DNA from: Bacteroidales bacterium
GTDB taxonomy: Bacteria; Bacteroidota; Bacteroidia; Bacteroidales; UBA10428
DNA: 49,755 nt
NCBI GenBank assembly: GCA_016926375.1
Contig: JAFGOR010000266.1
Span: forward strand, 1-49,755
Direction of reading: 5' to 3'
The notes under the pieces were generated by a model. That model worked only from the letters and a program-made list of their open reading frames with translations. It had not been told where the DNA came from and made no database searches. The translations under genes and the position numbers were made by a program. Shown piece after piece: positions 8,202-48,151 of the stretch. Within the stretch, counting starts at the first letter, position 1; each line of letters begins with the position of its first letter.

Positions 8202-8208
8202 ACACGGT

Positions 8209-17438: not shown

Positions 17439-17443
17439 ATCTT

Positions 17444-29832: not shown

Positions 29833-32800
29833 TTATCGGGATATGATTAATTTACTGATTCCTAATAGTTGATTTTTAACAGTCATTCGAATCATATAAA
29901 TACCATCCGGCAGGTCCGCAACAGGTATTTCTGCCATGTTGCTTCCGGCTTCCAGTTGGTTGGAATAAACAAGGCTGCCTGTGTTATTGTATAAGTTAAT
30001 CAAAGTACCAGATGTCAATTCGTTGTCAAACCTGACAAAAGCAGACTGACTTGCCGGATTGGGATACACGATGAAGTTCTTCTTCAGGGGCTTTTCAGGC
30101 CGGGGTTCAAAGATTCCTACTGCATTATCAATTGTGTCGAGTTTTGCCTGGTATACTTCATAGGTAGTTCCATCCTGCAAAAAAGCAACAAGTCGCAGCT
30201 GGAGTATATCGTATATATTCTGTAACGGCCATTCCAGGTATCTTTTTTCATGATCGCTTACACTCCACGATTTTGGAATTGAAATTCCCGCAGCTCCGGG
30301 CAACATGGCTTTTACTACATTTCTGAATACAGTATCGCCATTATTACCACTGATGCCGTGGATTTCTCTTTCAATAACAGCAACACGAAGAGACAATTCA
30401 GTCATTGGCATCGCGTTAACTGCCACAATATCCACTTCTACAATCAGGGTGTTGCCGTTCTTAATTCCCGAATTGATGCTGATATCGAAATTGGCATCGC
30501 GCAGCGATTCAATTATGGCAACATTCTTATTAAATGGCTTGGAACTTTCAATATAATCGAAACTGTGCTGGCTTGTTACACCGCCATTCAGCAGCGCATA
30601 AGGGACATCTGATACACCATAGTAAAACTCCCTGGTGGACGGGATAACCGGATTGTCTTCATAGAAAGGATCGCCTGGCGGGTTGGAGGTGTGATACTGT
30701 ATGTTAATAACGCTCAATTCATTGTTTTCGGTGAAAGCGTCCAGCAGTGAGTCTGCCTCTATACAAGCTGCATCGGATGAGTTGGTGAAATGCTCAATAA
30801 GGGCAGTTCTCTTCCGCTCGCCTATCCAGAAATTATCAAAAGCAATTCCATTGTTATTTTGTGCAGAGCCGTCAGATCCATAGGCAATTCTGAATTGTAC
30901 CTGCGGTTTGTCTTTAAGAATATCAAGCGAATGACGTACTTCCTTCCATTCGGTATCATTGCCCAGGTTGGTAACGGGGTGAACACACCAGCCAATCTTG
31001 TTGTCGCCGATAAGCCCCGGTATGTAGGTATAATTGTACCAGCTGATACCATCGTTCAAATCGCCCAGCGGGGTCCATGTTTTTCCGCTGTCGGCACTGA
31101 ACTGAACATTCGCACCGTCCCGGTTGGAGTTAAACAGGCGCCAAACCCGCATTTTCAGCATGGGTTTTTCCGTTCCCCTGAAATCATAGCAAGGGGTCAA
31201 AACCCATGATTGCTCCCTGGGTGGCCGGGTACCCTGGGTAAGGGTGAACCAGCAATTGGCTCCCGAATAGGGGCCTGTAAAGCCCTTGCTGGGATCTCCC
31301 AACATCCAGCTGTTGGGTGAGTCAGACGAGCTGTCTTTAGTCCAGCCCGGAGCACCGGTTTCAAATTCCTCAAACTGGGTTTCTTCGGCAGGCACTAATG
31401 TGGGGCGCAATGCAAAAGTTTTGGTGGTACTGGTATAACATCCGTTTGAATTGTATAACTCCAGGCTAACGTTGTAGTTTCCGGGTTCAGCAAAAGCATA
31501 CGAAATATCTCTGGCTGTATCGTTAACAAGATAGCCTGACCCTGTTTTGTTCAATATTTTCCAGAAGAAAAGTGTGTCGCTCAGGAATCCGAAATTCGAG
31601 ACGGATGTATTGTTCAGGGTAACCGACTGTCCCAACTGGAAACATTCTGTCGCCCCTTTGAAATCGGCAACGGGACTCACACCAACATCAAAATTTGCTT
31701 GTTCTGGCTGGGGCAACCCGGCATCATAATAGGTATAAGTTATTGTGTAATTATTCGGGTTCAGCAAAGCAGGGTTGATGGTTGCTGTGTTGTCACCATG
31801 GTCGATTAGTCCAACTCCTCCGCTAATAGAAAATTCACCCGGTTCTCCTAAAATATTGGTTCCTGTAATGGTAAAAGGCTGATCGTTGGTGCAATACTTT
31901 GTGCGGTCATCCTCGAATTCAATGATGGAATTGGCTTCAAGAATTCTTACTACTGAAGTATCATAGCCCCAGCATGAGGATGAGTTTGCCCGGTAGGCAT
32001 AAACAATGTTGTTGGTGCCAACGGGGGCCAATGGAGGAAAGAAGGAATATTTTCCGTCATTGAGGATTAATCCGGGTCCTGAAAACTGGCTGTTTCCAGG
32101 GGTGCCAGTTGGCGTACCGGTTAAAGGAATCAATCTGGAGTCCAGTTTGTCATAGGCCGGAGCCAATCCGGTAAGTTCAACATCAGGCGCAGCGGTTATA
32201 GTTATGATGGCGTTACCGGCGACGGTACCCTTGCAGTTCTTATCATATACCTCGAGCAGATTGTAGGTGCCGGCTTTATTAACCGATATGGTATTCGGGC
32301 TCGAAGTAATTCCGATTCTCTGTGTCGTGTCAACACCTACCAGCCGGAACTTGTAACTCCACGGAGCATGGCCGGTTAGCGCAACACTCAGGTTGCCCGA
32401 AGTGTGCTGGCAAATGGTTTGTGTGCCCGAAATGGTAGCTGTGGGGATTTCATGCGACCTGATGGTTCCTGTTCCTGAAACCTTACCGGTACATGATTGG
32501 TCAGTAACAGCAGCAAGCGTATAGATACCCGGACTGGTCACTTCGAGGTCGTAGGTGTAACTGGACAAATTTCCGATGGTAGTTGGTGTGGCCCCGTCTT
32601 TCAGGTAAGTAAAGCTCCAGTTGGGAGTGCTTGTCGGTGATAGCGCAATGGTGAGCGTTGCGGGTTCACCGGGACAGATGCTGTCGAGGCCTGAAATGGT
32701 TGCCGATGGCGAAGGCTTATAGGAAACCCAGGCTGATCCGGAGGTGGTATCGCCGGGGCAGTTATTTGCATCCCTGATTTCAATAATCCGGTACCGGGTG

Positions 32801-35800
32801 GCTGTAGTTCCTATAACGCGGGCATTAAATGGAAACGGATCATCTGTGATATTTGTAAAGGTGGTATCATATGAAGCAGAATTTCCCCTGCGAAGTTTAA
32901 CGCTCCAGGGTGAAACACCGGCAACAAAGTTCATAGACAGGGATGCTTTACTCACTCCGTCATCGCAAATCTCATATCTTCCCCCCAGCAATGCCCTGGC
33001 CTTGGGATTGATCACCAACACTACCGGCTGGGATGCCGAAACATCAGCCAGATCGCTGCCTGCATCAGCCAGACTCAGCAGGGTGTAAGTGCCCGGAATT
33101 TTCACATTAATAATACGCGGCGAAGCAACAATGCCTGAAATGGTCGTGTCTTTGTTGGCGCTGCTGTTGGTTCTCCGAAGAATTGCAGTATAAGGTGATT
33201 GCCCGGCATTGATGGTCAGCGTAATGGGCATAATGGCTCCGTGGCATGCCGTGTCGCTTCCGGTAATGTTGGCACTGTAAGAACCAATCGGACCAATGAT
33301 GTTGCTCCATACCGAGTCGCCCGGTGTGGAACCTGATTGTGCCACCGGATATACCCTGTACCAGATCCATTTGTTGGCATCGGCAGCCACCAGCCGGTAT
33401 GTTGAGTCGGTTGTGCCACCCGGTGTGAGCAATGTTCCGGGAGCAGCAGGGGTTGGAGCTGATGTGTTGGAACGGTACCAGTAGAAGATGGAGTTGCCTC
33501 GCAGATTATTTTCTTTATCGGAATAAGTGAACCTGCCCCGGATAATTGCTCCGGGCTGGGTAAGCGGGGCATATATGGTAGCATTGGATGCAACCGGATT
33601 GGCATTGATGTACCTGAAATCACTTCTGGACGGAAGTCCTGCCAGAGTATTTTCATCAACAGGGGTTACTTCAAAACCGATGTATTTTCCGCCGTCGGCC
33701 TTTACTGCCCGGTAGGTGGCAGTTGTGGCACCGGCGATTACGGTTGCCGGAGAACCATTGGGATAATCGGAACGGTACCATTTGTATATATGAATTCCGG
33801 GATCATCTCCATCGGGATCTGTAAAAGTGAACGACCCGGTGTTCAAAGTGCCAATACGATCGTTGGCGGCTGTGATGATCACGTCGGTAGCCACCGGGGC
33901 ATCATTAATTGCAGTTATGGTAACTGTTTTGGTAATGATGTTGCTCAGCTGATTTACGGTTTCTCCGTCAGTAACCCGGAATGAGATAACCCTGCTGGTT
34001 GTGGTGGGACCTTCACTGGTATTCACATACCTGACACTGCGCAGTGCTGTGCGGTAGTTGGCCAGTGTTGTGGTACCAGAAAGCGTGAGTATACCGGACG
34101 TGGAATTATAAACACCGGTAATGCCGTTTGCACTGGTAAAGGACAATACGTCTTCGGTTGTCTGGAATCCTGATGTAATAGAGATGGTAGCGCCGGTGAG
34201 CGATGTATTGTCGGGATCGGCTACGGTAATGGTATTGGTCAGCTGAACCGAAGGGCTGTTTTCAGTGTAATTCACCGGGGCGGTGGCGTCGTCGGCAAGC
34301 ACCGGGGCATCGTTTACTGCAGTCAGGGACACTGTTTTTACTATGCTGTTGCTCGTGTTGGTACCATCGGTAACTGTGAAAGTAACCGATCTGTTGGCAA
34401 TGGTAGGATTGTCGCTGGTGTTGTTATACCTGACAGTGCGCAGCGCTGCCTGGTAATTGGCCAAACTGGCTGATCCGGTGAGTGCAAGAACACCGGTAGC
34501 CGGGGTATAACTACCCGAAATGCCATTGGCTTCAGTGAACGATAAGAAATCTTCTCCCGACAGGAATCCTGTGGTTATGGAAATAGTAGCCCCGTTTAAT
34601 GTGAGATTATCTGAATCGGTAACCGTGATGGTACTGGTGAGTGTAACAGGCGTTGCGTTTTCGGTATAATTTATTGTGGAAGAAGAAGTCTCAGCGAGTG
34701 TCGGAGGGTTGTTTTCCCCGGTCACGATGATGTTTCTGCTTACAAGTTCGCTGTTGAGTTCTCCATCATTCACCCTGAATGAAATGGTTCGCGTTACAGC
34801 ACTGGGATTGGAGCTGGTATTGTTGTACCTGATGTTACGAAGTGCATTCTGGTAGTTGGCAAGTGTGCCACTGCCGGTCAGCGTGTATTCACCCGATCCG
34901 GGATTCCAGGCTCCTGTTAATCCATTGGTGTTTGAACACGACAATACGTCCTGCCCATCCGTGTAACCAGCAGAAATCCAAACGCGGGCTGATGCCAGGT
35001 TGGGGTTGTCGACATCGGAGGTTGTAATGGTATTGGTAATCTGAACCGCACCAGCGCCTTCGGCATATTCCAGATTGGATGATTCCATGTTGCTGAGCAC
35101 GGGGACATCATTTACAGCGGTAACTGTAAATATAGCCGGGTCGCTGTCATATCCGCCAATCGGATCGGTAGCTTCGAATGTAATGGTTTCCGACCCGTTC
35201 CAGTCGGCATTGGGAATGGTTATGGTAGCTACGCTGCCTGAAATGGAAACGGTCAGCGACGAGTTACCGTAAGAATCCAGGTCCAACTCACTTATTGTAT
35301 GGTCGGGATCTGTAACATAGCTGTCCAGGTTGATGGTGGTGAATGTGGATCCTTCTGCTACGGTTTGGTTTGGAATATCGGCTACCACAGGCGGATCGTT
35401 CTGTGCACTAACGTGAACGGTTTTACTGAGCGTATTGCTGAATTCAGTTCCGTCATATACCCTGGTTTCAATGGTGCGGTCGGTGGTAGTGGGGTCCTGG
35501 CTCGAATTGCCAAATGTAATGGTTTGCATCACGGTCTGGAACGCAGCCGGTGTAGCCGGTCCGTTCAGGGTAAGTATGCCGGTTGAAGAATTATACGAGC
35601 CGGTAATACCGGAACCAAGTGTAACGGAAAGCACATCTGCAGAGCTTTGAAGTCCGCCTGTAATTCCAACCGTGGCATATTGGAGTGTGAGGTTATCCGG
35701 GTCATTGACTACGAGGCCGGATAGAATCTGAATGGCGGGACCATCTTCGTTAAAAGTATACTCGGAAGCTGAGAATTCGCTGAGAACGGGGGCATCGTTA

Positions 35801-37941
35801 ATAGAAGTAATGGTAATGGCAACAGTAGCAGGGTCACTTTGCGCAGTGCCGTCAGAGGCCTTGTATGTGAAGGAATCGCTTGTGTTTTCTTCGCCATTGT
35901 TTACGTATGTGAACGAGCCGTTAGTGTTTAGCGTGAATGAGGAATGGAAGGATGGATTGGTTTCCAACATGGCTAAGAGTGGGTCACCGTCTCCGTCGGT
36001 ATCGTTGGTCAGTATCCCCGGTGCAGACACAGTGAGTGTGCCTCCTTCGGCAACGGTATAGCTGTCATCATTGGCAACAGGTGTTTCGGCGAGTGCAGTG
36101 ACCTCGAAAGTGGCGCTTTCGGAATCGGAAAGATCTTCCGTATCGGTGACTGTAAAAGTGATGATTTCCGAACCGTTCCAGTGTTTGCTAGGTGGCGTGA
36201 TAGTGGCAATATGTGAGTCTTCGTTGATGTTAACATCCAGCCTGTTTTGTCCTGTGGCTGTCCAGGCAAGCAGGTAATCCGCATCTTCAGCGTCATCAAC
36301 CAACTGGTTCAGGTCGATATCAGCGAAATCATCTCCTTCCTGAATAACCTGTCCGGTTAATCCGGTAATTACCGGGGCATCATTAACCGGATGCACCTCA
36401 ATGGTTACGTTGGCTACATTGCTTTCTGCAACCCCGTCATCGATAAGATAGGTAAAAGCGTCTGAGGTGGTTTCGCTTCCATCGTGCGTATAAGTGAATG
36501 CGCCGCTGGGTTCGAGGCTGAATGAGGTGCTATGTGCGGGACTGTTTTCCAACACAGCCAGCAGGCTGTTACCATCGCCACCGGTGTCATTGGAAAGTAC
36601 GCCCGGAGCTGAAACGGCAAGTGTTGTGCCTTCAGCAATGTCATACGCATCGTTAACAGCAACAGGCGCTTCATATATAGCATTGATTACAAAGGTGGCT
36701 GCTTCGGAGGCAGTGGATAATTCCGGGTCGGAAACGGTAAAGGTAATGGTTTCGGTACCATTCCAATCAGACGATGTCGCACTAATGCTGGCAATATGTG
36801 AAGCCTCGTCAATGCGTACATCCAGATTATCTTGGCCTGTGACACTCCATGCCAACAGGTCATTGCTGGTTTCGGCATCGGATACAAAGTTGTTAAGCGG
36901 TAAATCGGCAAAAGCCTCTCCTTCGTTGATGGTTTGTCCGGTTAATCCTGTAATTACCGGGGCATCATTAACCGGATTCACCTCAATGGTTACGTTGGCT
37001 ACATTGCTTTCAACAGCACCGTCATCAATAAGGTAGGTAAAACCGTCTGAGGTGGTTTCGCTTCCGTTGTGCGTATAAACAAACGATCCATCTCCGTTCA
37101 GGTTGAAGGTTGAGCCGTTAACGGGGCCTGTGACAGCTATGGCAGTCGTAGATTCGTCATCTGCATTGAAATCGTTTGAGAGCACTCCTGACGCGGGAGT
37201 GCTAAGCGTAGCGCCCTCGTCCACCACATAATGGTCGTCTATTGCAACGGGTTCAGGTTCTTTAACGGTAAAGACCGAGAGGTCACCGACTTCTGCTTGT
37301 CCGTCTGACACCGAAAAGGTAATGGCTTCATTGCCGATCCAGTTCTCCGGCACCTCCACGTATGCATAGTGCACCTCGTCTATATCAACTGACAATTCTT
37401 CATTGCCATCGTATTCCCAGGTAAGCTCACTTTTGCTATTGTCAACGTCAGTCACATAATCATCCAGCGGCACCGGGGCAAAGGTTTCTCCTTTTTCAAT
37501 GGTGAAATTGGGGATGTCAGCCAGTACCGGTAAATCGTTAACGGGGGTAACCATAAAGGTTGCTTCATCGGAATCCGAAAAGGTGCCATCGCTAACAGTA
37601 AAGGTGATTAATTCGGACCCGTACCAGTTTTCATCGGGCACGATTACAACGGCAGTGCTTTCGGTCAGATGCACTTTAATTTCAGTGAACTCATCGGATA
37701 CCTCCCAGTTAAGCATGTCATCGGGGGTATCTTCGTCAGAAACAAGATCATTCAGCATGATCTCTGCAAAGGCGGTACCTTCTTCAACAGTCTGATCAGG
37801 AATATCGGATATTTCAGGAGCAAATTGTCCGTTCATATATACGGGGAGGAGAAATAAACCAAATGCAGTCAGCAATACAGCTAGTTTATTTATTCTTGGG
37901 AAAGTTCTCATAACAAGTAGTTTAATTCGGTATGGCAACAA
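29833..37941 (-). CDS. 2702-aa T9SS-sorted giant adhesin-like protein with cadherin/VCBS-like tandem repeats; paralog of 25913..29692
   Basis: Repeated PVNDAPVITGLTGQ.., VAEGTTLxVSAPGVLSNDT.., NYQxALRxxRYxNTS blocks; same C-terminal Omp28-like region; C-terminal FIVYPNPASQSAFVRFD...DGIYMIRM. Confidence 0.9.
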   Translation of the reverse strand: MLPYRIKLLVMRTFPRINKLAVLLTAFGLFLLPVYMNGQFAPEISDIPDQTVEEGTAFAEIMLNDLVSDEDTPDDMLNWEVSDEFTEIKVHLTESTAVVIVPDENWYGSELITFTVSDGTFSDSDEATFMVTPVNDLPVLADIPNFTIEKGETFAPVPLDDYVTDVDNSKSELTWEYDGNEELSVDIDEVHYAYVEVPENWIGNEAITFSVSDGQAEVGDLSVFTVKEPEPVAIDDHYVVDEGATLSTPASGVLSNDFNADDESTTAIAVTGPVNGSTFNLNGDGSFVYTHNGSETTSDGFTYLIDDGAVESNVANVTIEVNPVNDAPVITGLTGQTINEGEAFADLPLNNFVSDAETSNDLLAWSVTGQDNLDVRIDEASHIASISATSSDWNGTETITFTVSDPELSTASEAATFVINAIYEAPVAVNDAYDIAEGTTLAVSAPGVLSNDTGGDGNSLLAVLENSPAHSTSFSLEPSGAFTYTHDGSETTSDAFTYLIDDGVAESNVANVTIEVHPVNDAPVITGLTGQVIQEGDDFADIDLNQLVDDAEDADYLLAWTATGQNRLDVNINEDSHIATITPPSKHWNGSEIITFTVTDTEDLSDSESATFEVTALAETPVANDDSYTVAEGGTLTVSAPGILTNDTDGDGDPLLAMLETNPSFHSSFTLNTNGSFTYVNNGEENTSDSFTYKASDGTAQSDPATVAITITSINDAPVLSEFSASEYTFNEDGPAIQILSGLVVNDPDNLTLQYATVGITGGLQSSADVLSVTLGSGITGSYNSSTGILTLNGPATPAAFQTVMQTITFGNSSQDPTTTDRTIETRVYDGTEFSNTLSKTVHVSAQNDPPVVADIPNQTVAEGSTFTTINLDSYVTDPDHTISELDLDSYGNSSLTVSISGSVATITIPNADWNGSETITFEATDPIGGYDSDPAIFTVTAVNDVPVLSNMESSNLEYAEGAGAVQITNTITTSDVDNPNLASARVWISAGYTDGQDVLSCSNTNGLTGAWNPGSGEYTLTGSGTLANYQNALRNIRYNNTSSNPSAVTRTISFRVNDGELNSELVSRNIIVTGENNPPTLAETSSSTINYTENATPVTLTSTITVTDSDNLTLNGATISITTGFLSGEDFLSFTEANGISGSYTPATGVLALTGSASLANYQAALRTVRYNNTSDNPTIANRSVTFTVTDGTNTSNSIVKTVSLTAVNDAPVLADDATAPVNYTENSPSVQLTNTITVADPDNTSLTGATISITSGFQTTEDVLSFTSANGITGVYNSTSGILTLSGTTTLANYRTALRSVRYVNTSEGPTTTSRVISFRVTDGETVNQLSNIITKTVTITAINDAPVATDVIITAANDRIGTLNTGSFTFTDPDGDDPGIHIYKWYRSDYPNGSPATVIAGATTATYRAVKADGGKYIGFEVTPVDENTLAGLPSRSDFRYINANPVASNATIYAPLTQPGAIIRGRFTYSDKENNLRGNSIFYWYRSNTSAPTPAAPGTLLTPGGTTDSTYRLVAADANKWIWYRVYPVAQSGSTPGDSVWSNIIGPIGSYSANITGSDTACHGAIMPITLTINAGQSPYTAILRRTNSSANKDTTISGIVASPRIINVKIPGTYTLLSLADAGSDLADVSASQPVVLVINPKARALLGGRYEICDDGVSKASLSMNFVAGVSPWSVKLRRGNSASYDTTFTNITDDPFPFNARVIGTTATRYRIIEIRDANNCPGDTTSGSAWVSYKPSPSATISGLDSICPGEPATLTIALSPTSTPNWSFTYLKDGATPTTIGNLSSYTYDLEVTSPGIYTLAAVTDQSCTGKVSGTGTIRSHEIPTATISGTQTICQHTSGNLSVALTGHAPWSYKFRLVGVDTTQRIGITSSPNTISVNKAGTYNLLEVYDKNCKGTVAGNAIITITAAPDVELTGLAPAYDKLDSRLIPLTGTPTGTPGNSQFSGPGLILNDGKYSFFPPLAPVGTNNIVYAYRANSSSCWGYDTSVVRILEANSIIEFEDDRTKYCTNDQPFTITGTNILGEPGEFSISGGVGLIDHGDNTATINPALLNPNNYTITYTYYDAGLPQPEQANFDVGVSPVADFKGATECFQLGQSVTLNNTSVSNFGFLSDTLFFWKILNKTGSGYLVNDTARDISYAFAEPGNYNVSLELYNSNGCYTSTTKTFALRPTLVPAEETQFEEFETGAPGWTKDSSSDSPNSWMLGDPSKGFTGPYSGANCWFTLTQGTRPPREQSWVLTPCYDFRGTEKPMLKMRVWRLFNSNRDGANVQFSADSGKTWTPLGDLNDGISWYNYTYIPGLIGDNKIGWCVHPVTNLGNDTEWKEVRHSLDILKDKPQVQFRIAYGSDGSAQNNNGIAFDNFWIGERKRTALIEHFTNSSDAACIEADSLLDAFTENNELSVINIQYHTSNPPGDPFYEDNPVIPSTREFYYGVSDVPYALLNGGVTSQHSFDYIESSKPFNKNVAIIESLRDANFDISINSGIKNGNTLIVEVDIVAVNAMPMTELSLRVAVIEREIHGISGNNGDTVFRNVVKAMLPGAAGISIPKSWSVSDHEKRYLEWPLQNIYDILQLRLVAFLQDGTTYEVYQAKLDTIDNAVGIFEPRPEKPLKKNFIVYPNPASQSAFVRFDNELTSGTLINLYNNTGSLVYSNQLEAGSNMAEIPVADLPDGIYMIRMTVKNQLLGISKLIISR
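36351..37077. repeat. Intragenic near-identical DNA repeat: ~142-bp copies at 36351-36492 and 36936-37077, 585-bp period
   Basis: gtccggttaatcc.gtaattaccggggcatcattaaccgga..cacctcaatggttacgttggctacattgctttc... aligned by eye with about 11 mismatches. Confidence 0.88.
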
Positions 37942-38141: not shown

Positions 38142-39338
38142 TCAGAAAGAAGCTTCAGGGCCTACTTTGATTAAGGCTACGGCGGTATTTCGATCTGAAT
38201 GGTGGTTGGTTCCGAGAATGATAAAGCCACCGTTTGAAACAGGCCTGAATGACATTGCGGTAAGTTCACTGGCTATACCGAAGTCCGAGTGGGATTTCTG
38301 ATTTCCTGAAGCGTCGGCAGCAATAAGACAAATAGCAGAATTTGAAGCTGTAGTTGCGGTAGTGCCTAAAACATAAATAGAATTACCTGCTTTAAAAACG
38401 CTGCACCCCACATTTTTCCCATTGTTGATGTAAGTTTTTCTCCAATCCACGCTGTGGGGGAAGGAGGTAAATGAAACTGCGTTAAGCGCTATGTCGGTTC
38501 CTGTGGCAGTTTTAACCGTAGATAGAACCAGGAAATGGTCGTCATCCAGAACCCGGATGCAGTTGCCTTCTTCATCGGTGTTTGATGACAGGTAATATTG
38601 ATCATTCACAGCACCCTGATCGGTGGTTTTCAGAACAAAAACATTAGGAATGCCCGGATAGGAAGGATTGTTTTTTGACGTACCGGTAATGACAAAGCCA
38701 TCGGATAAAATCTGAACGTACTGGCCTACGGCATCACGGGGTGCCAATTTCGAGAGAAGTTTCGGCTCCCAAGGCTCATTGCCGCTGTTATCGAGGGCTG
38801 CAAGCCAGATTCTCTTAATATTGTCGGATTCCTGTGCGTAGCCGGTAATGATGAATGAACCACCGTCGTCTATTTCGAAATGCCGGGCTTCAAGAATGCC
38901 TGTTGATGAAAAAACATGCGACCAGATTCTGTTTCCTTTCTGGTCGGTGCGGATTACGATGACATCCTGCTTGTCGGTAACCGGGTTCCGGGATGATCCC
39001 AAAATTGCAAAGCCGCCATCAGATGTGGTTTTCAGACAGAAGGCCCGGTCGTTATATATCTGATCGGCGACTACCCTGTAAAAGTACTTTGCAGAATCGA
39101 TGGAATTTCCATATTCATCAGTACGGATAAGGCAAATCCTTGTTGTTTCGTCATCCAGCTTTGAGGTGCCGACAAAAGCATACCCGGTTGACGTTTCGGT
39201 AACGTCGGCAGCTGAGAATTCCGAGTAATTTTTATAAAATTTGACAAATTGTTCCGCCTGAATGTCAGATATTTCCTTCTCATCACAGGCAAAAACAATC
39301 AGGAGCAGTATCGTGGGTATGAAAAATTTCCCTTTCAT
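38142..39338 (-). CDS. Lipoprotein with beta-propeller-like repeats, unknown function
   Basis: Lipobox LLIVFAC; repeated TSTGYAFVGTSKLDDE / TSDGGFAILGSS / DDGGSFIITGY / LSDGFVITGTS / VSNGGFIILGTN blades. Confidence 0.8.
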   Translation of the reverse strand: MKGKFFIPTILLLIVFACDEKEISDIQAEQFVKFYKNYSEFSAADVTETSTGYAFVGTSKLDDETTRICLIRTDEYGNSIDSAKYFYRVVADQIYNDRAFCLKTTSDGGFAILGSSRNPVTDKQDVIVIRTDQKGNRIWSHVFSSTGILEARHFEIDDGGSFIITGYAQESDNIKRIWLAALDNSGNEPWEPKLLSKLAPRDAVGQYVQILSDGFVITGTSKNNPSYPGIPNVFVLKTTDQGAVNDQYYLSSNTDEEGNCIRVLDDDHFLVLSTVKTATGTDIALNAVSFTSFPHSVDWRKTYINNGKNVGCSVFKAGNSIYVLGTTATTASNSAICLIAADASGNQKSHSDFGIASELTAMSFRPVSNGGFIILGTNHHSDRNTAVALIKVGPEASF

Positions 39339-39340
39339 GA

Positions 39341-40399
39341 TTAACGCTGTTTTTTGGGCTTGTAAAACGAAAAATAGTAACCGGCTGTGAGTGAATAGGT
39401 ATTCAGAGAGAAATCGTCATCACTATAATAGAATTTATCAACAAATTCTTTATTGTATGATGCTACAATGTTGTTGATTCCAAAACCAGCTCTTAACCCC
39501 ACGGCAATAACCCCCCTGGGCACCTTGTACCTGATTCCGGCGCCGGCTAATCCGCTGTATAGCATGCTGGTTCTATAAGCACTAACGTCTGTTGATTCTC
39601 CCGATAACGATTGCATATTTTCATGGAACTTCCGTGAGGATTGTCCGGTAGTTCCTGTAATTTTGGCTGCGGAGGCACCCAGGCTTACGTAACAGTTTAC
39701 CTTCTGAATATTGAATTCATAGGCAACATAAACCGGCATTTCAACCTTGAACAGTTTCTCGGTATAGGAAACCGAACTTAATCCATCGATCAGGGGCTGA
39801 CGGATTTCGTCGGTGAATTTATACTGATTGGAAGTGAAGTTGAATTCAATGTTAAAAACCATGTTTTTGCGGATGTAGCGCCCTATACCTAAACCAACCT
39901 GAAATCCGGGTTTCATGGTGTTCTTAAGTTCTGCCTGGCTCAGGTCGAAAGTAGAAACAGGCTCGATGATTCGGGGGTCAGTAAGGTTGAATCCTGCCGT
40001 AATTCCGAAAGAGAAGACGGAAGTAGTCCGATAGGATTCGAAAAGATAAACAAATTCGATGGGGTCATTGGGCGAAACCTCATACTCGGGATACTTTTTC
40101 AGAAATTCGAGCATGGTCTTCTCTGCTTCAAACTGGTTGTCATCAAAAAGATAAGAAAGGATAATCAGCTTATAGGCTTCAACTTTCTGCACCCTTGTGA
40201 AACCTTCTTCCATGCATGGGGCAAGCATTTTAGGAATCTCATCGATCATTCCCTGATCATACAGTTTCCGTGCTTCCTGTATTTTTGTTGCGCAATCTTC
40301 CTGAGCAAAACTTTCGCCAACATTAATAAATAATTGAAAGCAAAGCACCAGTATGGTCAGCAAAAAAACTCGGGATTTGGTCATGTTTTTGAATAACAT
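39341..40399 (-). CDS. Outer-membrane beta-barrel protein (PorT-like) with N-terminal TPR-like region
   Basis: Signal peptide; FSFGITAGFNLTDPRI, MKPGFQVGLGIGRYIRKNMVFNIEFNF, C-terminal aromatic strand SLTAGYYFSFYKPKKQR. Confidence 0.8.
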   Translation of the reverse strand: MLFKNMTKSRVFLLTILVLCFQLFINVGESFAQEDCATKIQEARKLYDQGMIDEIPKMLAPCMEEGFTRVQKVEAYKLIILSYLFDDNQFEAEKTMLEFLKKYPEYEVSPNDPIEFVYLFESYRTTSVFSFGITAGFNLTDPRIIEPVSTFDLSQAELKNTMKPGFQVGLGIGRYIRKNMVFNIEFNFTSNQYKFTDEIRQPLIDGLSSVSYTEKLFKVEMPVYVAYEFNIQKVNCYVSLGASAAKITGTTGQSSRKFHENMQSLSGESTDVSAYRTSMLYSGLAGAGIRYKVPRGVIAVGLRAGFGINNIVASYNKEFVDKFYYSDDDFSLNTYSLTAGYYFSFYKPKKQR

Positions 40400-40408
40400 A
40401 TAGGTTTA

Positions 40409-43400
40409 CTATTTATTAGGGCAGGTTTTCTGGAGATTGACATCATAACCGACATACGTATCCCATTCACGTTGGGTGAGGTTTCGTGAAATATTGGTGC
40501 ACATTTGTTCAGCCATAAAAGCAGCATGCGTTGGCCAGTAATGGATGTTCCCATTCTGGGTGGACGAAATCAGGTATTTACCATCGGGACTAAAGGCTAT
40601 TGACAATACCCATGAATCATGCCTGTTTATTACAACCGGCCGGTTATTCATATTGTTTACATCCCATATTTTAACTGTTTTATCAGTGCTGCAGGTAGCC
40701 AGCTGGCGGTCATCGTTACTGAACTTAACATCCTGAATACGCACTGAATGAGCTGCAAAGCTGGTGGTCACACGGTTGGTGGTTGCATTCAGGATTCTCA
40801 GGAACCCATTTTTGTCGGCAAAAGCAATACGTCCGCCATTGGAACTGATGGAAACGGCATGGATGGAATTGCCGTCGGATTGGAACACTACGGTCTGTTC
40901 CTTGGTATCCAGGTTCCAGCGTATCAGCCGGCCGTCATCGGTTCCGCCAAAGAGAAATCTTCCTGATGGAGAAACGGCAAGGCACCTGACATAAGTGGTT
41001 GCCAGGGTAATGAATACACTATTGGTATTTTCGATAAGATTCCAAACCATGATGGTTTTGTCGGTACTTGCCGAATACAGGTATTTGCTGTCGGGGGTAT
41101 AGTCAAGTGCGCCAACCCAGCCTTTATGTCCTTCAAGCAGTTCGGGAACAGTATTGGCGGTATTCAGGTTAAAAAGCTGAATACCTGAGGTTTGGGTGCC
41201 ACATGCCAGCCAACGTCCGTTTGGACTGATAGAGAGGCTCCGGTTAAAGAATGAATTGCGGATAAGTGGTCTTCCTGTTTTGGTATTGCTGTTCAAATCG
41301 AAACGCAGGATCTTGCCGTCAAACCCGGAACTGTATAAAGTATTTGTACCGGGTACAAAAGCTAAAGACTGCACAGATCTTTCATGGCCTGACAGGCTGT
41401 TAAAAGCCGGGCCTTTAAAACCTGCCATGGCATCAAACAAGGCCATGTAAATATCAGGGTGATCGTTCTGGCCACCGTAATCCTTATTAAACTGAAAAGC
41501 CTGATAAGCCAGCAAACCTTTCAGGTTGTTGTCGTCAACCTGGGTGACTTTAACTGCCATGGTTTGTGCAATGGAGAGCATTTTTTTGGTAAGCTCCTGG
41601 GTTTTTTCCATTTCAGTGACACTCTGTTTTTCAATTGCCTTATCTGCAACTTTTTCTGCTTCTTCTTTTTGCTTCTGGTATGTTGCACTTCTTTTGGCTG
41701 CTTCTTCGGCTTGCTGGAATGCAATTATTTTTTCCTGTTCGGCAACCTTCGACTGGAAAAATGCAAGTTTGCCTGCACGTTCAGCCGAGTCCGCAATTAT
41801 TTCAGCAAGCATTTGCTCAACCTCAGCCATACTGGCTCTTCCTTCGGCCAAAATCCGGAGGCTGTCGGCTTCCTTTTTCCTGTAGATTGCTTCTTCCGAT
41901 GCGTCTTCAGCTTCCCTCGCTTTTTTAATTGCTTCACCCCGTTGCTGGAAACCCCAAACCGAGATAGTGAGAAAGGCTACAGCGGCAATAAGCATGCTGG
42001 AGGCAAACTTCCGGGTACGGTTCAGTTCCATACGCTGCAACCGCACTTTGTTTTGTTCTTCCTGCTGGTATTTCTTCTCGCTGGCATCAAGAAAAACCAT
42101 TACCTTTTCAAAGGCAGGGTTGTATTTTTTGGCCCAAGCCAGGGTAGGTTGTTGTGTTTTTTTCCAGTTCAGTGCCAGCTGCAAATCAGGTGGCCTCCAC
42201 AGCCCCGTTTTCCCGATCTGATATAATGAAGACGCTTCAGCCAGCCTCAGGTACATCTGTACGGATGAGAATTCCTCATCTACCCACGACCTGAGTTTGT
42301 CCCAGATGCGCATCAGGCTTTCATGGGAGATGTCGATTACCGTATCGCTGTCTATAAACACCTCTTCTCCCGGGGTGACGAAGGATCTGCCCTTTGCCCT
42401 GAACTTGTTCACAACATCGATAACCTTTTCATCGGGAACCTGGGCTATTTCCGCAATGTATTTAATGGTGGCAGGGTGGCGTGTTCCCTTGTTGTCAGCT
42501 CCCTTTTCAGTTAGGCAGCGAAACATGGCCTTACAAATCACCTTACCTTCATCTGTAAGCTCTTCAAATGCTTCATTGGCATGCATCGACAGGGCGTTGT
42601 CAATTCTTCCGGCAACTTCGTAATCGCGTATGCGCAAGGGAGCCGCAGGTTCATTATTCCGGGTCCAGAATTCCCAGGTTCGCATCATCACATGCTGCAG
42701 AACCGGGAGTTGGTCGCTTTTATCTTCAATGGCATTCAGCAAATGCTGCAACAACTGCGGATCAATCTCAGCTCCCCCAACAGCTAACGGGCCGTTAATG
42801 GCTTCGCGGAAATCATCACGTGTCATCTGGGGAATCAGAAAGTTACTTTTGTTGATCAGCTTGGTTAATTCCTGGAACTGCGAACACTCTCCGATAAAAT
42901 CGGAACGCATGGTAAGCACTACATAAATGGGCTGATCTTTTTGCTTGATGGCATTTACCAGCATTTTAATGTAGGCTTCGGTTTCATTAACAACAGTAAT
43001 GTCTTTCCGGCTTTCCTTATACCGAAACAATTCCTCAAACTGGTCGAGAATCAACAGAATGTTCTCATCCTTTGAAAGTTTGATTTGCCTTGCAGCATTA
43101 ACAAGACCAAATGAACTTCGCCTTAATATGGTGTAAAGAATCTGCTTGTCAGTTGAAATTTCTTCATCTGTTTTATCACTTTTTTCACTGGCTGCAATGG
43201 CCTGGGCAAGATTTTCAACCGGACTGTTTCCGGGTCTTGTGGTAATGATTCTCCATTTTGAACCGGCATTGGTAATGAAACCACCATATAAAGCCGGTAT
43301 CAATCCGCAATAAATCAGGGATGATTTACCACTTCCGGACGCACCGGTAACAGCTGCAAAACGGTTTTTGGCAAGGTATTCCAGCACAATCTCACACTGA

Positions 43401-43516
43401 CCTTCACGTCCAAAAAACAGATGGCTTTCTTCAACACTGAAAGGCCTGAGTCCGGGGAAAGGATTTGCCAGTGTCAGCGTGCTGGTTCTTATATTTCGTA
43501 TCGGATTCTCTGTCAT
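40409..43516 (-). CDS. nSTAND1-type NTPase with TM segment, coiled coil and C-terminal WD40 repeats
   Basis: NPFPGLRPFSVEESHLFFGRE, Walker A GASGSGKSSL, Walker B ILLILDQFEELF; TM FASSMLIAAVAFLTISVWGF; WD40 blades HERSVQSLAFVPG.., HKGWVGALDYTPDSKYLYSASTDKTIMVWNL, DVKFSNDDRQLATCSTDKTVKIWDV. Confidence 0.94.
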   Translation of the reverse strand: MTENPIRNIRTSTLTLANPFPGLRPFSVEESHLFFGREGQCEIVLEYLAKNRFAAVTGASGSGKSSLIYCGLIPALYGGFITNAGSKWRIITTRPGNSPVENLAQAIAASEKSDKTDEEISTDKQILYTILRRSSFGLVNAARQIKLSKDENILLILDQFEELFRYKESRKDITVVNETEAYIKMLVNAIKQKDQPIYVVLTMRSDFIGECSQFQELTKLINKSNFLIPQMTRDDFREAINGPLAVGGAEIDPQLLQHLLNAIEDKSDQLPVLQHVMMRTWEFWTRNNEPAAPLRIRDYEVAGRIDNALSMHANEAFEELTDEGKVICKAMFRCLTEKGADNKGTRHPATIKYIAEIAQVPDEKVIDVVNKFRAKGRSFVTPGEEVFIDSDTVIDISHESLMRIWDKLRSWVDEEFSSVQMYLRLAEASSLYQIGKTGLWRPPDLQLALNWKKTQQPTLAWAKKYNPAFEKVMVFLDASEKKYQQEEQNKVRLQRMELNRTRKFASSMLIAAVAFLTISVWGFQQRGEAIKKAREAEDASEEAIYRKKEADSLRILAEGRASMAEVEQMLAEIIADSAERAGKLAFFQSKVAEQEKIIAFQQAEEAAKRSATYQKQKEEAEKVADKAIEKQSVTEMEKTQELTKKMLSIAQTMAVKVTQVDDNNLKGLLAYQAFQFNKDYGGQNDHPDIYMALFDAMAGFKGPAFNSLSGHERSVQSLAFVPGTNTLYSSGFDGKILRFDLNSNTKTGRPLIRNSFFNRSLSISPNGRWLACGTQTSGIQLFNLNTANTVPELLEGHKGWVGALDYTPDSKYLYSASTDKTIMVWNLIENTNSVFITLATTYVRCLAVSPSGRFLFGGTDDGRLIRWNLDTKEQTVVFQSDGNSIHAVSISSNGGRIAFADKNGFLRILNATTNRVTTSFAAHSVRIQDVKFSNDDRQLATCSTDKTVKIWDVNNMNNRPVVINRHDSWVLSIAFSPDGKYLISSTQNGNIHYWPTHAAFMAEQMCTNISRNLTQREWDTYVGYDVNLQKTCPNK

Positions 43517-44997
43517 TTCTTTCCCAAATGATCTAAAAAGTGATTAATCACATCGTGGTTTATTTCGTCATCCCAGTTAACGGGCACATTTTTAAGGAAA
43601 AGCAATGATTTATCTGCTGTTTTCCTGTTTGAAATGATCTCCACAGCCCTGAATGGCTTGCTTTTCCCAAAGCCCGGTGATTTTACCAGATCACGTATCT
43701 TGCTGTTCAGCCAGTCCATGGTGCTGTCGCCCTTGTATATCAATACGGCATCAGCAGCAAGCAGGTTTTCAATATGCCTGGAAAGCGGGAAGAATTCTTC
43801 CCCGGTTCCATTCTGCTCTAAAATGGAGAACCCTTTGGAACGCATTACGTCAATATATTCGGCCATTTTACCGGCTGAGGCTTTTTCAAAAATGATGTAA
43901 AGCTTGTTCTTTTCTGCTGCCGGTTTTCCCTGTGGATTGGTCAGCTCATTCAGCCTGGTATTGAGAATGGTCTTGAAAACTTCAAAGGGAGTTTCAATTA
44001 TTTCAGTAAGATATTGTGCCTCATCTCTTTTTAACCTCTTCAGATAGAGTGCCTGACGCTGATCGGTAGGCTTAATATCATTGGGGATCCAAATGATCTG
44101 ATTGGGTTTTTGTTTGTTCTCTTTACTATCCAGGAAATCCTTGACCGTTTTAATCTGGAAATCAATGAGTGAAAATTTGGAATTTTTAATGAATTCACCA
44201 TACCAGGATCCGACAAGATGAATGGTCATAACAGATTGTTTGAGACACTGCTCAATGGCCTGTTTGGCCTTGTCAGCTTCTTCCGGAACGGGCAGAACAG
44301 GCAATACCCGGTATCCAAGATACTGCAGCTCGCGTTTCAGCATATCCCTGCTTTCGGTAAGGTCGAATGTGGTTTCGGCCAGGAAAACAGCAGGGCAGTC
44401 TTTCAATGGTTTTTTTTCTTGCGGGTCTTCTGAAAGATCAGCAAGAACATCTGTTATGTCGTAGGCAAGGTCAACCAGTTTGGACCAGAATTTTTCATCG
44501 GGGCCATTGACTCCGTCGAGATCGAATGTAACAGGCTTCTTGTTGAAACGATTTATCTCATAAAAGTTATAGCTCAACTCATTTTTCAGACATTCCGGTT
44601 GTTCTTCATTCAACATGGGCTGGGTGAAGACTTTAAAAATGCGGTGTTTTTTGCCGATCTCGCTTTTATCGCTGTTCAGCCAGTTGTGAAGATCTTCCAG
44701 CTCTTTTACATAAGACTTCGATTTGGCGTATTCCGGGGATAAAATCACAACAAACACGGCCGTGCTGGCAAACAGATTTCCGGCAGTTTCACCCAGTACG
44801 GATTGCCTTACGCGGAGATCGTCGTGCATCAGAAACCGGGGACTCTTATCAGACAGCCTGTTCATCAGCAGCGTAAGGTACTTGCTAAACTTCTGGGCCC
44901 ATCCGGTGGTAATCAGATTGTCATTCCCCGAAGAAGGGGCGTATCCAATGAATATGTCGTTCTCAAAACCCATTTCAAATTGTTTAAGCTTCCTCAA
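43513..44997 (-). CDS. TIR-domain protein with additional TIR/DUF4062-like domains
   Basis: N-terminal FENDIFIGYAPSSGND, AVFVVILSPEYAKSKSYVKELEDLHNW (TIR signature with candidate catalytic Glu); internal PAVFLAETTFDLTESRDMLKRELQYLGYRV; C-terminal KLYIIFEKASAGKMAEYIDVMRSKGF. Confidence 0.82.
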   Translation of the reverse strand: MRKLKQFEMGFENDIFIGYAPSSGNDNLITTGWAQKFSKYLTLLMNRLSDKSPRFLMHDDLRVRQSVLGETAGNLFASTAVFVVILSPEYAKSKSYVKELEDLHNWLNSDKSEIGKKHRIFKVFTQPMLNEEQPECLKNELSYNFYEINRFNKKPVTFDLDGVNGPDEKFWSKLVDLAYDITDVLADLSEDPQEKKPLKDCPAVFLAETTFDLTESRDMLKRELQYLGYRVLPVLPVPEEADKAKQAIEQCLKQSVMTIHLVGSWYGEFIKNSKFSLIDFQIKTVKDFLDSKENKQKPNQIIWIPNDIKPTDQRQALYLKRLKRDEAQYLTEIIETPFEVFKTILNTRLNELTNPQGKPAAEKNKLYIIFEKASAGKMAEYIDVMRSKGFSILEQNGTGEEFFPLSRHIENLLAADAVLIYKGDSTMDWLNSKIRDLVKSPGFGKSKPFRAVEIISNRKTADKSLLFLKNVPVNWDDEINHDVINHFLDHLGKK

Positions 44998-47900
44998 CTA
45001 TTCTCAGAATGGCATCCCTGAATTCGATATAATCAAACATCAGGGAATTAAGAACTTCCTGTTCCAGACTGTAGAACTTAAGTTCAGTAGCTGCTTTCAA
45101 AGAATAGATGTTGTCTTCAACATAAATATCGCTGTAAATTATATCATTTTTCTCAAAGGTATAAACTTTACCCGAAGAATTATTTATATGTGCCGTGCCT
45201 TCAATAATGATCATGAACGCAAAATGTACATCTTCACGTTTAACCAGGAACTCCTCACCGGCATTCATATGGTGAACATCGAATGTTCGGGCAATTTCCT
45301 GGAGGACATCTTCGGTTATATGTTCAAACGGGTTACATTTATTTATAAATCTGATTCGGTCGAGCAGGAGGTAGGGAATTCCATCAACCCGTTGATTCAG
45401 AGCTGATTTAAGAAGATTAACCTGTTGCTGACCCAGGCGGGCATAAACCGAGTCAAGTTTGGCCGGCTCGGTTTGTTCGGTTACAAATGCCGCTGTTTCA
45501 CTGATCATCTGGTTTGGATGGAAAATACCGGCAATAATTTCGGTACTCACGGTATTTTTTTTGAGTTTCATATAGCTTGAAATAGCGCAGGCTTTTACGT
45601 ATAACGAAAGCTGGTTGAAGTCTCTGGTAATGATGTTGAGAATGATGTTTTCGGGTGTTTCCTTAACTGCAGGGAAGAAATATTGAAGCTGCTTATAGCG
45701 TTCGGTTATGGAAATATTTTCCACTACGGGAAAGAAAACCTGCTTGATTTCTTCATTTACAATCTGATCAAGGAGCTCAATGCCAAAGCTGATGTCAGTG
45801 TCGCTCCCTTCCAGGAGCATATTCTTTATATTGCTAATGGATGTGGGATTATAGGCAAGTGCCAGAAGGTGGTAGAGCGTGTCGTAGTTATCCCTTATTT
45901 CTTTACTTAAAGCATCGGTGAGCAAGGTAAACTGACTGTATTTACGGATGCTCCCGAAAACGGCAAAGTTCCACGACATCACACTGATTAAACGAACAAT
46001 GTCATTTAAAATACGGTTGATATTGCCGGGAGTTGCTTGAAATTTTGCTTCACGCAGCGCAAGTAAAGCCTGTCTGGATATGATGCGGTTCTGATTTTCG
46101 ACCTTCGATAGCAGGTAGTCAATGGAAGCAGGGCTTGCGATTTTGCCATAGATACGTACGACTCTTGACAGCAATGTATTGTCAGCCTCGGGTTGCAGAA
46201 AAATTTCCTCCATGAATTGTATGCAAGGCTCGCCAATCTTAACAAGGGCTTCAAAAGCGTACGGATAGAAAACAGGTGTGGCCAGGTAACCAATTAATAC
46301 GTAACTGTGATTGGGATTGCCTAAGCGGGCCATCGCTTTTATGGAGGCAAGCTTGACATCCGGTTCTATATCTCTTACAAGATGAAGCAGAAAAATGCCC
46401 CAGTCCTGGTTATCGGAATTGCCAATAATTTCTGCAGCAAGTATCCGGTCGGTAACAGTGGGTGAATTGACCAGATTTTCAATGCCATTGCTTGAATTAC
46501 CGGCATTAATTTTAATTTCGAAGCGATTGATCAGTTTGTCCAGATTGCCATGGTGCTGGGAATTAGAACCAATTTTTCTAATTTCCTTTAACCTGGGTAG
46601 CGCACTTAACAGGGCATTTTCATTTATTCTTTCAAGGAGGTATTTTTGCAGGTTACCGGAATCGGTTCCCAGTAATGAAATGAGATGTCGTTCATGGCTC
46701 AGGGGTTCAATCCGTTCAATGATTGAAAGGGTGTTTATTGATTTAACATGGTTTTTACTGTTAATCAAGGTATGCGACTTTTCATCCGTATTCAAAAGAT
46801 CCATACTTAGGGCTCTTTTACTGGTCTTCAACCTTCGGATGGTTTCACGAAGTGCCTTCTGGTATGCCTTTACGAGAAGAACCGCGACGGGCAACCAGAT
46901 TAACGAAAGCAAAATGACAAGTAAAATGATGAAGGGCCCCCTGTTCAGGTTCAGAAAAATCAGACCCGACAATAAGAAGCCTGCAATCAGCAGACCGAGC
47001 ATTCTGAATGAACCTTCAAGCCTGGGCTTAATTGAATATATAAACCTGAGGTCAAGCGTTCGGAACAACACACGAAGGGATGGGAGCTCAATGGCCTCGA
47101 AAGCAGTTTCATAGCCGATTTTCAGCATGGCAACCATCAGGAATCCAAACGAAAAACGTGCAATTGCATTGGATTGTCCCACAAGCAAATCAACAACAAG
47201 AGTGGCAATGGAAGCCAGGATCAGCACGGAAGGAAGGAGTACCAGGCTGAAAGGCGAATCATAAGAGTACAGGATCTTTCTCAGCAGGAAGCGCTCAGTG
47301 CCATAAATGAACAGGAACATGGTGCCGGTAAAGAAACCGAAAAATTTAGCCAGCCCGATGGTGTTGGGATAATTGAACCGGGTTTCGCTCACAAAATAAT
47401 AATGAACAACAAAACCAAGTACGGAAGATATGAGCACAAATGCTAATAACAGCAGGGTGTACCGGGTATAAAACATTTCATAAAACCTGGACCGCAGCGG
47501 TGATAGTCGTTTCGGTGGTTGCGGAAAGGCTCCTGCGTGGTGATGGTGGTAATTGATAATGAGCTGCAAAAGCGCAGCAAAACCAATTAATGCTGCACTT
47601 ACCGCAGTAATAATCAGAATGTCCCAGTGAATGTAAAGTGCCCCGATGAGACCATAACTAAAAATCACAATACCTGCAATGAGTGCAGTCTGAAAAAACT
47701 GATAGAATCTTTTGTGTTGCTCGGGGGAAAAAACAGCTGCAGTGGAATGGCGGAATAAAATAAGTACCATGAATGTGAATGGCAGGTTGAGCGTAAAGGG
47801 CAGAAATAAGGGAATTCCAAACAGGTTTAAATCAGTGAACGTATCGTGAAAATAAAAAAGTGTAGCATTGGAAAGCAGCAGGAGAAAAAAGACCCAGAAT

Positions 47901-48151
47901 GAAAAATGCCGGAAATTAACCCGGTTGTTAAAGAATGAATAAACCGAAAAAAGGATAATTCCAAATATGCCGGATATTACAAATGCCTGAGGAATTTTTA
48001 CGGGTTCCCATGTCTGAAGAAAGAGGACATGCGAACCAATACCGAACAATGCAATAAATGCCCCAATAAAGAAAGCCTGAAGAGAGATGAGGGACAACAT
48101 GGCTGTCTCCTGGCGATTGTTGACATGTATTCCTAAAAACGTATTTATCAT
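44984..48151 (-). CDS. MFS/nucleotide-transporter-like membrane protein fused to HEAT repeats and a C-terminal cyclic-nucleotide-binding-like domain
   Basis: About 12 TM helices in the N-terminal ~430 aa; HEAT-like AAEIIGNSDNQDWGIFLLHLVRDIEPDVKLASIKAMARLGNP; C-terminal IARTFDVHHMNAGEEFLVKREDVHFAFMIIIEGTAHI. Confidence 0.83.
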   Translation of the reverse strand: MINTFLGIHVNNRQETAMLSLISLQAFFIGAFIALFGIGSHVLFLQTWEPVKIPQAFVISGIFGIILFSVYSFFNNRVNFRHFSFWVFFLLLLSNATLFYFHDTFTDLNLFGIPLFLPFTLNLPFTFMVLILFRHSTAAVFSPEQHKRFYQFFQTALIAGIVIFSYGLIGALYIHWDILIITAVSAALIGFAALLQLIINYHHHHAGAFPQPPKRLSPLRSRFYEMFYTRYTLLLLAFVLISSVLGFVVHYYFVSETRFNYPNTIGLAKFFGFFTGTMFLFIYGTERFLLRKILYSYDSPFSLVLLPSVLILASIATLVVDLLVGQSNAIARFSFGFLMVAMLKIGYETAFEAIELPSLRVLFRTLDLRFIYSIKPRLEGSFRMLGLLIAGFLLSGLIFLNLNRGPFIILLVILLSLIWLPVAVLLVKAYQKALRETIRRLKTSKRALSMDLLNTDEKSHTLINSKNHVKSINTLSIIERIEPLSHERHLISLLGTDSGNLQKYLLERINENALLSALPRLKEIRKIGSNSQHHGNLDKLINRFEIKINAGNSSNGIENLVNSPTVTDRILAAEIIGNSDNQDWGIFLLHLVRDIEPDVKLASIKAMARLGNPNHSYVLIGYLATPVFYPYAFEALVKIGEPCIQFMEEIFLQPEADNTLLSRVVRIYGKIASPASIDYLLSKVENQNRIISRQALLALREAKFQATPGNINRILNDIVRLISVMSWNFAVFGSIRKYSQFTLLTDALSKEIRDNYDTLYHLLALAYNPTSISNIKNMLLEGSDTDISFGIELLDQIVNEEIKQVFFPVVENISITERYKQLQYFFPAVKETPENIILNIITRDFNQLSLYVKACAISSYMKLKKNTVSTEIIAGIFHPNQMISETAAFVTEQTEPAKLDSVYARLGQQQVNLLKSALNQRVDGIPYLLLDRIRFINKCNPFEHITEDVLQEIARTFDVHHMNAGEEFLVKREDVHFAFMIIIEGTAHINNSSGKVYTFEKNDIIYSDIYVEDNIYSLKAATELKFYSLEQEVLNSLMFDYIEFRDAILRIVEEA

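What the first reader, a model, noticed from the sequence alone, without database searches (positions are those of the whole stretch)
38142..48151. Five-gene cassette: transporter-HEAT-cNMP-fold / TIR / nSTAND-WD40 / OM beta-barrel / lipoprotein
Seen: five same-strand genes with nearly no spacing: 14-nt overlap (44984-44997 with the annotated TIR start), an ATGA 4-nt overlap (43513-43516), a 9-nt gap and a 2-nt gap. Established: TIR domains and STAND NTPases are common in immune and signalling conflict systems; WD40 is a typical STAND sensor. Inference: the unusual point is that the TIR/STAND pair is co-packaged with inner-membrane, outer-membrane and surface lipoprotein parts, suggesting a trans-envelope sensing or effector complex rather than a purely cytosolic defence system.
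Basis: partly seen in the sequence, partly recalled or inferred. Interest (0 to 1): 0.85.

Follow-up and report, generated by a model that had tools for sequence, protein, structure and literature searches.

The report
Surface adhesin-linked trans-envelope STAND cassette
A strongly conserved, apparently undescribed set of neighbouring genes in environmental Bacteroidota couples a giant surface protein and outer-membrane parts to an NLR-like switch ATPase that seems to span the inner membrane, and it looks like a surface-sensing device rather than a classical phage-defence system.

Summary
The five genes are real. Three junctions are as stated; the 14-nt overlap rests on a TTG start, and relatives support an ATG at 44973 with a 10-nt gap. 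The cassette is larger: two giant type IX-secreted proteins follow (29833-37941, 25913-29692), and outside the window's family a HAMP-SpoIIE phosphatase often sits between genes 1 and 2. The linkage is not chance: the order recurs in 78 distinct loci; P4/P2 and P4/giant-module presence match across 246 genomes (Fisher 4e-27, 4e-25), and the profiles recovered whole cassettes in another order. The nSTAND has conserved Walker motifs, one membrane helix with positive-inside charge and an all-or-none cysteine pair, so its WD40 is probably periplasmic, facing the TPR-like domain of the outer-membrane protein. A second class fuses that domain to a TonB-dependent receptor, usually still beside the nSTAND gene. 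The TIR-like protein is optional and its catalytic Glu is not conserved (17/29), so a conserved immune NADase role is unlikely. Best reading (about 0.55): trans-envelope sensing of surface or adhesin state by an NLR-like ATPase. No description was found in the searched open-access literature. Function is untested.

The parts
44984..48151 (-). P1: 12-TM nucleotide-translocase (NTT)-like domain + HEAT repeats + degenerate cNMP-binding fold, 1055 aa
   Evidence: Profile matches AtNTT1/Chlamydia NTT1 (E 5e-16, 2e-15), HEAT and PKG cNBD; AF2 pLDDT 84.6, Foldseek 9j3l TM 0.71 and 9j3m 0.74; no conserved Arg of a phosphate-binding cassette in the cNBD
43513..44973 (-). P2: three tandem TIR-like domains (first TIR, second DUF4062-like, third TIR-like), 486 aa from ATG 44973
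   Evidence: Pfam DUF4062 E 2.7e-4 and TIR_2 E 0.005, both under the curated cut-offs; AF2 pLDDT 81.7 with three Rossmann-like units; Foldseek matches to SARM1, SNC1 and TLR15 TIR, prob up to 0.99 but E about 0.004-0.04; start
40409..43516 (-). P3: nSTAND1 NTPase - single TM - coiled coil - WD40 propeller, 1035 aa
   Evidence: nSTAND1 E 1.7e-92, WD40 E 2.8e-40; Walker A GxSGSGKSS and Walker B DQFEE invariant or nearly so in 34 sequences
41948..42004 (-). Predicted single transmembrane helix of P3 (aa 505-523), N-in/C-out
   Evidence: Hydropathy peak with 5-7 K/R before and 1-5 after in 34/34 sequences
40517..41434 (-). WD40 region of P3, predicted periplasmic
   Evidence: C1006 and C1032, just after the propeller, are present together (25) or absent together (9) in 34 sequences
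39341..40399 (-). P4: outer-membrane beta-barrel with periplasmic TPR-like N-terminal domain, 352 aa
   Evidence: OMP_b-brl_2 E 7e-10; invariant C36 and C62 in 20/20; the name TPR-like is a judgement from the sequence, no Pfam TPR hit
40025..40300 (-). TPR-like periplasmic domain of P4 (aa 34-125), the part shared with the TonB-receptor class
   Evidence: Profile positions about 5-120 match the N-terminus of 864-925 aa TonB receptors
38142..39338 (-). P5: predicted outer-membrane lipoprotein beta-propeller, 398 aa, lipidated Cys18
   Evidence: C18 invariant in 27 sequences; profile matches CylK, E 5e-33
29833..37941 (-). Giant surface protein 1: Cadherin/Big_9 repeats + conserved C-terminal module + T9SS sorting tail (listed start TTG 37941; a nearer ATG lies at about 37908)
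   Evidence: Cadherin_4, Big_9, Por_Secre_tail E 2.4e-12; same-strand giant downstream of P5 in most other loci
30502..31374 (-). Cassette-associated C-terminal module of giant 1 (MAM-like half + EHFTN/Trx-like half)
   Evidence: Near full-length matches with E < 1e-70 in 25 of 246 genomes, 22 of which carry P4
25913..29692 (-). Giant surface protein 2 in tandem, same C-terminal module (26588-27460) and T9SS tail
   Evidence: E 6.2e-106; Por_Secre_tail E 1.4e-10

Best explanation
A trans-envelope signalling complex reports the state of a giant T9SS-displayed surface protein (contact, load or binding) to the cytoplasm. Proposed path: giant protein -> OM lipoprotein propeller P5 and barrel P4 -> TPR-like domain of P4 in the periplasm -> periplasmic WD40 of P3 -> across one TM helix -> ATP-dependent oligomerisation of the cytosolic nSTAND NTPase -> clustering or activation of inner-membrane partners (the NTT-HEAT protein P1, the TIR-like scaffold P2 and, where present, the HAMP-SpoIIE phosphatase as enzymatic output). 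Supported by sequence here: gene linkage, intact NTPase motifs, TM with positive-inside charge, all-or-none cysteine pair, optional P2, intact SpoIIE motifs where that gene exists, and giants with a recurrent C-terminal module. Inferred: every physical contact, the direction of signalling, the stimulus and the output. It works like FecA-FecR trans-envelope signalling, but with an NLR-like ATPase in place of an anti-sigma factor.
For: Gene order kept in 78 distinct loci with tight spacing and in another order of the class. P4 presence matches P2 (22 genomes shared, 3 and 1 exclusive) and the giant's full module (22 shared, 3 and 3 exclusive) across 246 genomes, Fisher 4e-27 and 4e-25. P3 Walker motifs conserved, single TM with K/R-rich N side in 34 of 34; cysteine pair in P3 all-or-none; invariant Cys pair in the P4 TPR-like domain. 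That domain is the constant part: in a second class it is fused to Plug + TonB-receptor barrel, and all 14 such loci, picked for lying near a P1 match, have P3 directly beside it. Distance matrices over 42 loci: the TPR-like part correlates with P3 (partial 0.38 NTPase, 0.32 WD40) and not with its own barrel (0.03), while the barrel correlates with P5 (0.34). SpoIIE catalytic motifs essentially intact in 20 of 20. Housekeeping-type neighbours in the loci checked and P2 retained in 22 of 23 family genomes.
Against: No experiment. Mirror-tree values are not corrected for shared ancestry or saturation, and the strongest partial value is P1-P5 (0.45), which the model does not predict. The SpoIIE gene is absent from the window's own cassette, so the output there is unclear (other SpoIIE proteins exist in the genome). 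TPR-like TonB receptors without P3 nearby also exist (L179, L180, L184), so the domain is not exclusive to this partner. Persicobacter plasmids carry giant-P4-P5 without P3 within the 29 kb fetched. Nine of 34 P3 sequences lack the cysteine pair.
Confidence: 0.55

Rival explanations
1. Adhesin-biogenesis platform: P3, P4 and P5 assemble, anchor or release the giant T9SS protein, with the nSTAND ATPase as assembly motor or checkpoint and no signal sent inward.
For: The giant with its C-terminal module and T9SS tail is the downstream partner; P4-P5-giant exist without P3 in Persicobacter; barrel distances track P5.
Against: The TonB-receptor class has P1 and P3 with no giant-module match in the fetched loci; a conserved HAMP-SpoIIE phosphatase and NTT-HEAT protein look like signalling parts.
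Confidence: 0.2
2. Anti-phage or abortive-infection system: WD40 senses a trigger, STAND oligomerises, the TIR-like protein depletes NAD+.
For: TIR, DUF4062 and STAND domains all occur in defence; DUF4062 proteins are NADases that defend by abortive infection (PMC13174449). The window's own P2 has a Glu (E91) at the TIR catalytic column.
Against: P2 absent from many otherwise complete cassettes; catalytic Glu only 17/29, with Asp in congeners; no PADLOC match on P1, P2, P4, P5 and only partial ones on P3; P2 retained in 22 of 23 family genomes; WD40 predicted periplasmic; no phage record matches P2.
Confidence: 0.1
3. Uptake system with ligand sensing: the OM barrel or TonB receptor takes up a ligand and P1 moves nucleotides or a related metabolite, with P3 regulating it.
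For: P1 has the NTT fold; class 2 uses a true TonB-receptor barrel.
Against: The window class has a small OMP_b-brl barrel, unlikely to be a large-ligand channel; the giant surface protein is not explained. NTT substrate residues were not tested.
Confidence: 0.12
4. Ordinary co-transcription of unrelated envelope genes kept together by vertical descent.
For: Homologs inside one family share ancestry.
Against: Order kept across many families and another order at 20-30% identity, with different flanks.
Confidence: 0.03

Closest known systems
FecA-FecR type trans-envelope signalling (recalled from general knowledge)
   Same: OM barrel with a periplasmic adaptor domain next to an inner-membrane protein with a periplasmic domain; class 2 even has a TonB receptor
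   Different: TPR-like instead of STN domain, nSTAND-WD40 instead of anti-sigma, no sigma factor seen in the cassette
STAND/NLR conflict systems with WD40 or other sensors (PMC7159879, PMC8195603)
   Same: nSTAND1 NTPase with C-terminal propeller and an associated TIR-like protein
   Different: sensor predicted periplasmic, with OM barrel, lipoprotein and T9SS giant partners; TIR-like part optional, catalytic Glu not conserved
Swarozyc DUF4062 TIR-like NADase (PMC13174449)
   Same: P2 domain 2 matches DUF4062 weakly
   Different: three-domain protein beside a STAND gene; catalytic Glu not shown to be present in domain 2
Plastid/Chlamydia ATP/ADP translocators (NTT)
   Same: P1 membrane domain fold, TM-score up to 0.74
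   Different: adds HEAT repeats and a degenerate cNMP fold; transport untested
nSTAND1 systems in multicellular bacteria (PMC10907252)
   Same: nSTAND1 domain; some STAND-system targets with predicted periplasmic parts
   Different: there diversified CLec sensors; no OM or T9SS partners in the passages read

Membership tests
STAND NTPase (nSTAND1) | nSTAND1 domain with Walker A and B | tested here: met
   PF20703 E 1.7e-92; motifs conserved in 34 sequences
TIR NADase effector | TIR fold | tested here: met
   Model with TIR structures among the hits and HMMER alignment to plant TIR; weak E-values, taken as met for domain 1 only
TIR NADase effector | Conserved catalytic Glu | tested here: not met
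   Column aligned to plant WCxxE has Glu in 17 of 29; present in the window copy
DUF4062/Swarozyc NADase | DUF4062 domain over curated cut-off | tested here: not met
   21.5 bits against cut-off 24.7
DUF4062/Swarozyc NADase | Active-site Glu (E97 in KpSwz) | tested here: inconclusive
   Alignment stops at KpSwz residue 75; a nearby invariant residue in P2 is Gln273
Known anti-phage systems (PADLOC) | Match to a defence-protein model | tested here: not met
   None on P1, P2, P4, P5; P3 matches HEAT-ARM_XIII over part of its WD40 repeats (3e-18) and mad8/mad3 weakly
FecA-FecR trans-envelope signalling | OM barrel with periplasmic signalling domain contacting inner-membrane partner | not testable with these tools
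   Adjacency, topology and distance correlation only; contact not shown
FecA-FecR trans-envelope signalling | Anti-sigma/sigma pair in the locus | tested here: not met
   No sigma or anti-sigma among the cassette genes scanned
NTT nucleotide translocator | NTT fold | tested here: met
NTT nucleotide translocator | Substrate-binding residues and transport | not tested
   Residue list from the structural paper was not obtained (one search failed and was not repeated)
SpoIIE phosphatase (PX, other families) | Intact PP2C metal-site motifs | tested here: met
   SGDF(Y/F)W, DCTGHGVPGA, SDG and DD motifs present in 20 of 20
T9SS cargo | Por_Secre_tail and a T9SS in the lineage | tested here: met
   Por_Secre_tail on both giants; SprA in 20 of 24 genomes, not found in the window's own incomplete genome

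The most novel reading that the evidence does not exclude
A bacterial, integrin-like outside-in sensing system: a secreted giant adhesin signals across two membranes through a TPR-barrel and a WD40 to an NLR-type ATPase, with interchangeable outer-membrane inputs (adhesin class and TonB-receptor class) on one conserved inner-membrane core.
Probability: 0.4. Interest if true: 0.92.

Novelty: new variant of a known kind. Interest (0 to 1): 0.75.

Why it matters
STAND/NLR ATPases are known mainly as cytosolic sensors in immunity and cell death. Here one appears wired to the outer membrane and to giant T9SS surface proteins, in a cassette found in about a tenth of the sampled genomes of an environmental order and in near-complete genomes of another order. 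If right, it gives a testable route by which bacteria sense surface contact or adhesin load across the envelope, a second input class through TonB receptors, and a setting in which a TIR/STAND pair probably serves something other than immunity.

Tried and rejected
No Rfam or tRNA feature in the window. Promoter/terminator scans gave chance-level counts and are not used. P4 profile against PDB: no match. Foldseek of P2 as a whole gave no match at E <= 0.001 and is used for fold class alone. Considered and rejected: immune NADase cassette as the main reading (P2 optional, Glu not conserved); the 14-nt overlap (TTG start); cNMP binding by P1 (no conserved phosphate-binding Arg). Literature searches over the open-access library gave no paper describing the cassette; subscription papers and supplements were not covered.
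Full report
Observation. The window is the whole contig G000:C41 of a fragmented genome; its relatives in the named collection are Bacteroidales and other Bacteroidota, nearly all metagenome-assembled. The five - strand genes exist. The ATGA overlap, the 9-nt gap and the 2-nt gap are exact. The 14-nt overlap is not supported: the sequence reads GTTGAGGAAGCTTAA-ACAATTTGAA-ATG, and homologs start at the equivalent ATG, usually after a short gap.

What the genes are. P1 has an NTT-like membrane domain, HEAT repeats and a cNMP-fold (AtNTT1 5e-16, cGMP-dependent kinases about 1e-6; model pLDDT 84.6, TM-score 0.71-0.74 to AtNTT1). Its cNMP-fold lacks a conserved phosphate-binding Arg. P2 folds as three Rossmann-like units with TIR structures among the Foldseek hits, though none at E <= 0.001. 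P3 is nSTAND1-TM-WD40. P4 is a TPR-like domain plus OM barrel. P5 is a predicted lipoprotein with invariant Cys18 and a propeller.

The cassette is larger. Directly downstream lies a giant of Cadherin/Big_9 repeats with a T9SS tail, and in the window a second one follows. The last ~600 aa are conserved among 23 giants whose total length runs from 1612 to 2752 aa. A module within it (A8) matched nearly full length at E < 1e-70 in 25 of 246 genomes; weaker hits cover mainly its first half, which is a more general domain. Between P1 and P2 many other families have a HAMP-SpoIIE phosphatase with intact motifs in 20 of 20 homologs. It is missing from the window family's cassettes, although SpoIIE-domain proteins occur elsewhere in those genomes.

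Conservation. P2 was found in 22 of 23 family genomes. Across 246 genomes of the order, P4 presence matches P2 (22 shared, 3 and 1 exclusive; Fisher 4e-27) and the giant module (22 shared, 3 and 3 exclusive; 4e-25). In 78 distinct loci, order and spacing repeat: P2-P3 median -4 nt, P3-P4 11 nt, P4-P5 3 nt, P1-SpoIIE 18 nt, P5-giant module 49 nt. The profiles then recovered six cassettes in three genomes of another order in the class, two per genome, all with P1-P3-P4-P5 and a large downstream ORF (matching the module in three of them) and three with P2. The Fisher values count related genomes and are not phylogenetically corrected; the sets were read off the hit lists at E < 1e-60 (P4), 1e-30 (P2) and 1e-70 (module).

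Second class. P4's TPR-like domain also stands at the N-terminus of 864-925 aa proteins; the four scanned have Plug and TonB-receptor barrel. All 14 loci chosen because they lie near a P1 match have P3 immediately beside it; of eight further informative loci chosen only by the TPR match, four have P3 adjacent and four do not. The 13 full-length P3 of this class group on one branch of a quick tree.

Topology and contacts. P3 has a single strong hydrophobic helix with 5-7 K/R before and 1-5 after in 34 of 34. C1006 and C1032 occur together or not at all (25 and 9), and the P4 TPR-like domain has two invariant Cys. These fit an oxidising periplasm. In a distance-matrix comparison of 42 loci, the TPR-like part tracks P3 and not its own barrel, while the barrel tracks P5; this is suggestive only.

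The TIR part. HMMER aligns P2 E91 with the Glu of the plant TIR WCxxE motif. It is Glu in 17 of 29 homologs and Asp in two close relatives. Domain 3 has invariant W421 and K425; domain 2 has invariant Q273; that these sit at the catalytic positions is my inference by motif spacing, as the KpSwz alignment ends before its E97. P2 is missing from many otherwise complete cassettes. A conserved NADase role is therefore unlikely, though the window copy itself could be active.

Interpretation. I favour outside-in trans-envelope sensing (0.55) over adhesin biogenesis (0.2), uptake sensing (0.12) and immunity (0.1). Contacts, direction, stimulus and output are all inferred.

Novelty. The searched open-access literature gave no description of the cassette. 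DUF4062 NADases (PMC13174449) and STAND conflict systems (PMC7159879, PMC8195603; PMC10907252) are the nearest; the passages read do not describe OM or T9SS partners. I rate it a new variant of a known kind, with the integrin-like reading as the novel case.

Noticed in passing
L145, L146 (Persicobacter plasmids): Giant-P4-P5 occur without P3 or P1 in the 29 kb fetched, near a 439/434 aa protein (AAA ATPase in L145) and an 856/855 aa unknown protein.
   Followed up: partly
L147-L159, L090: TonB-receptor class carries different output-like genes: Y_Y_Y-SpoIIE or Reg_prop-HATPase sensor proteins, plus formyltransferase- or HMGL-like genes.
   Followed up: partly
L179, L180, L184: TPR-like domain in 742-799 aa ORFs without P3 nearby.
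   Followed up: no
window 9769-14204 and 1963-9660: MBOAT and GDSL genes and three PMT_2-type membrane glycosyltransferase-like genes, possibly surface glycan modification.
   Followed up: no
window 16545-18244: parA and parB genes on the same contig; origin proximity not tested.
   Followed up: no
G000:C242:21456-22181: A second barrel-type match to the P4 profile in the own genome without the TPR-like part.
   Followed up: no
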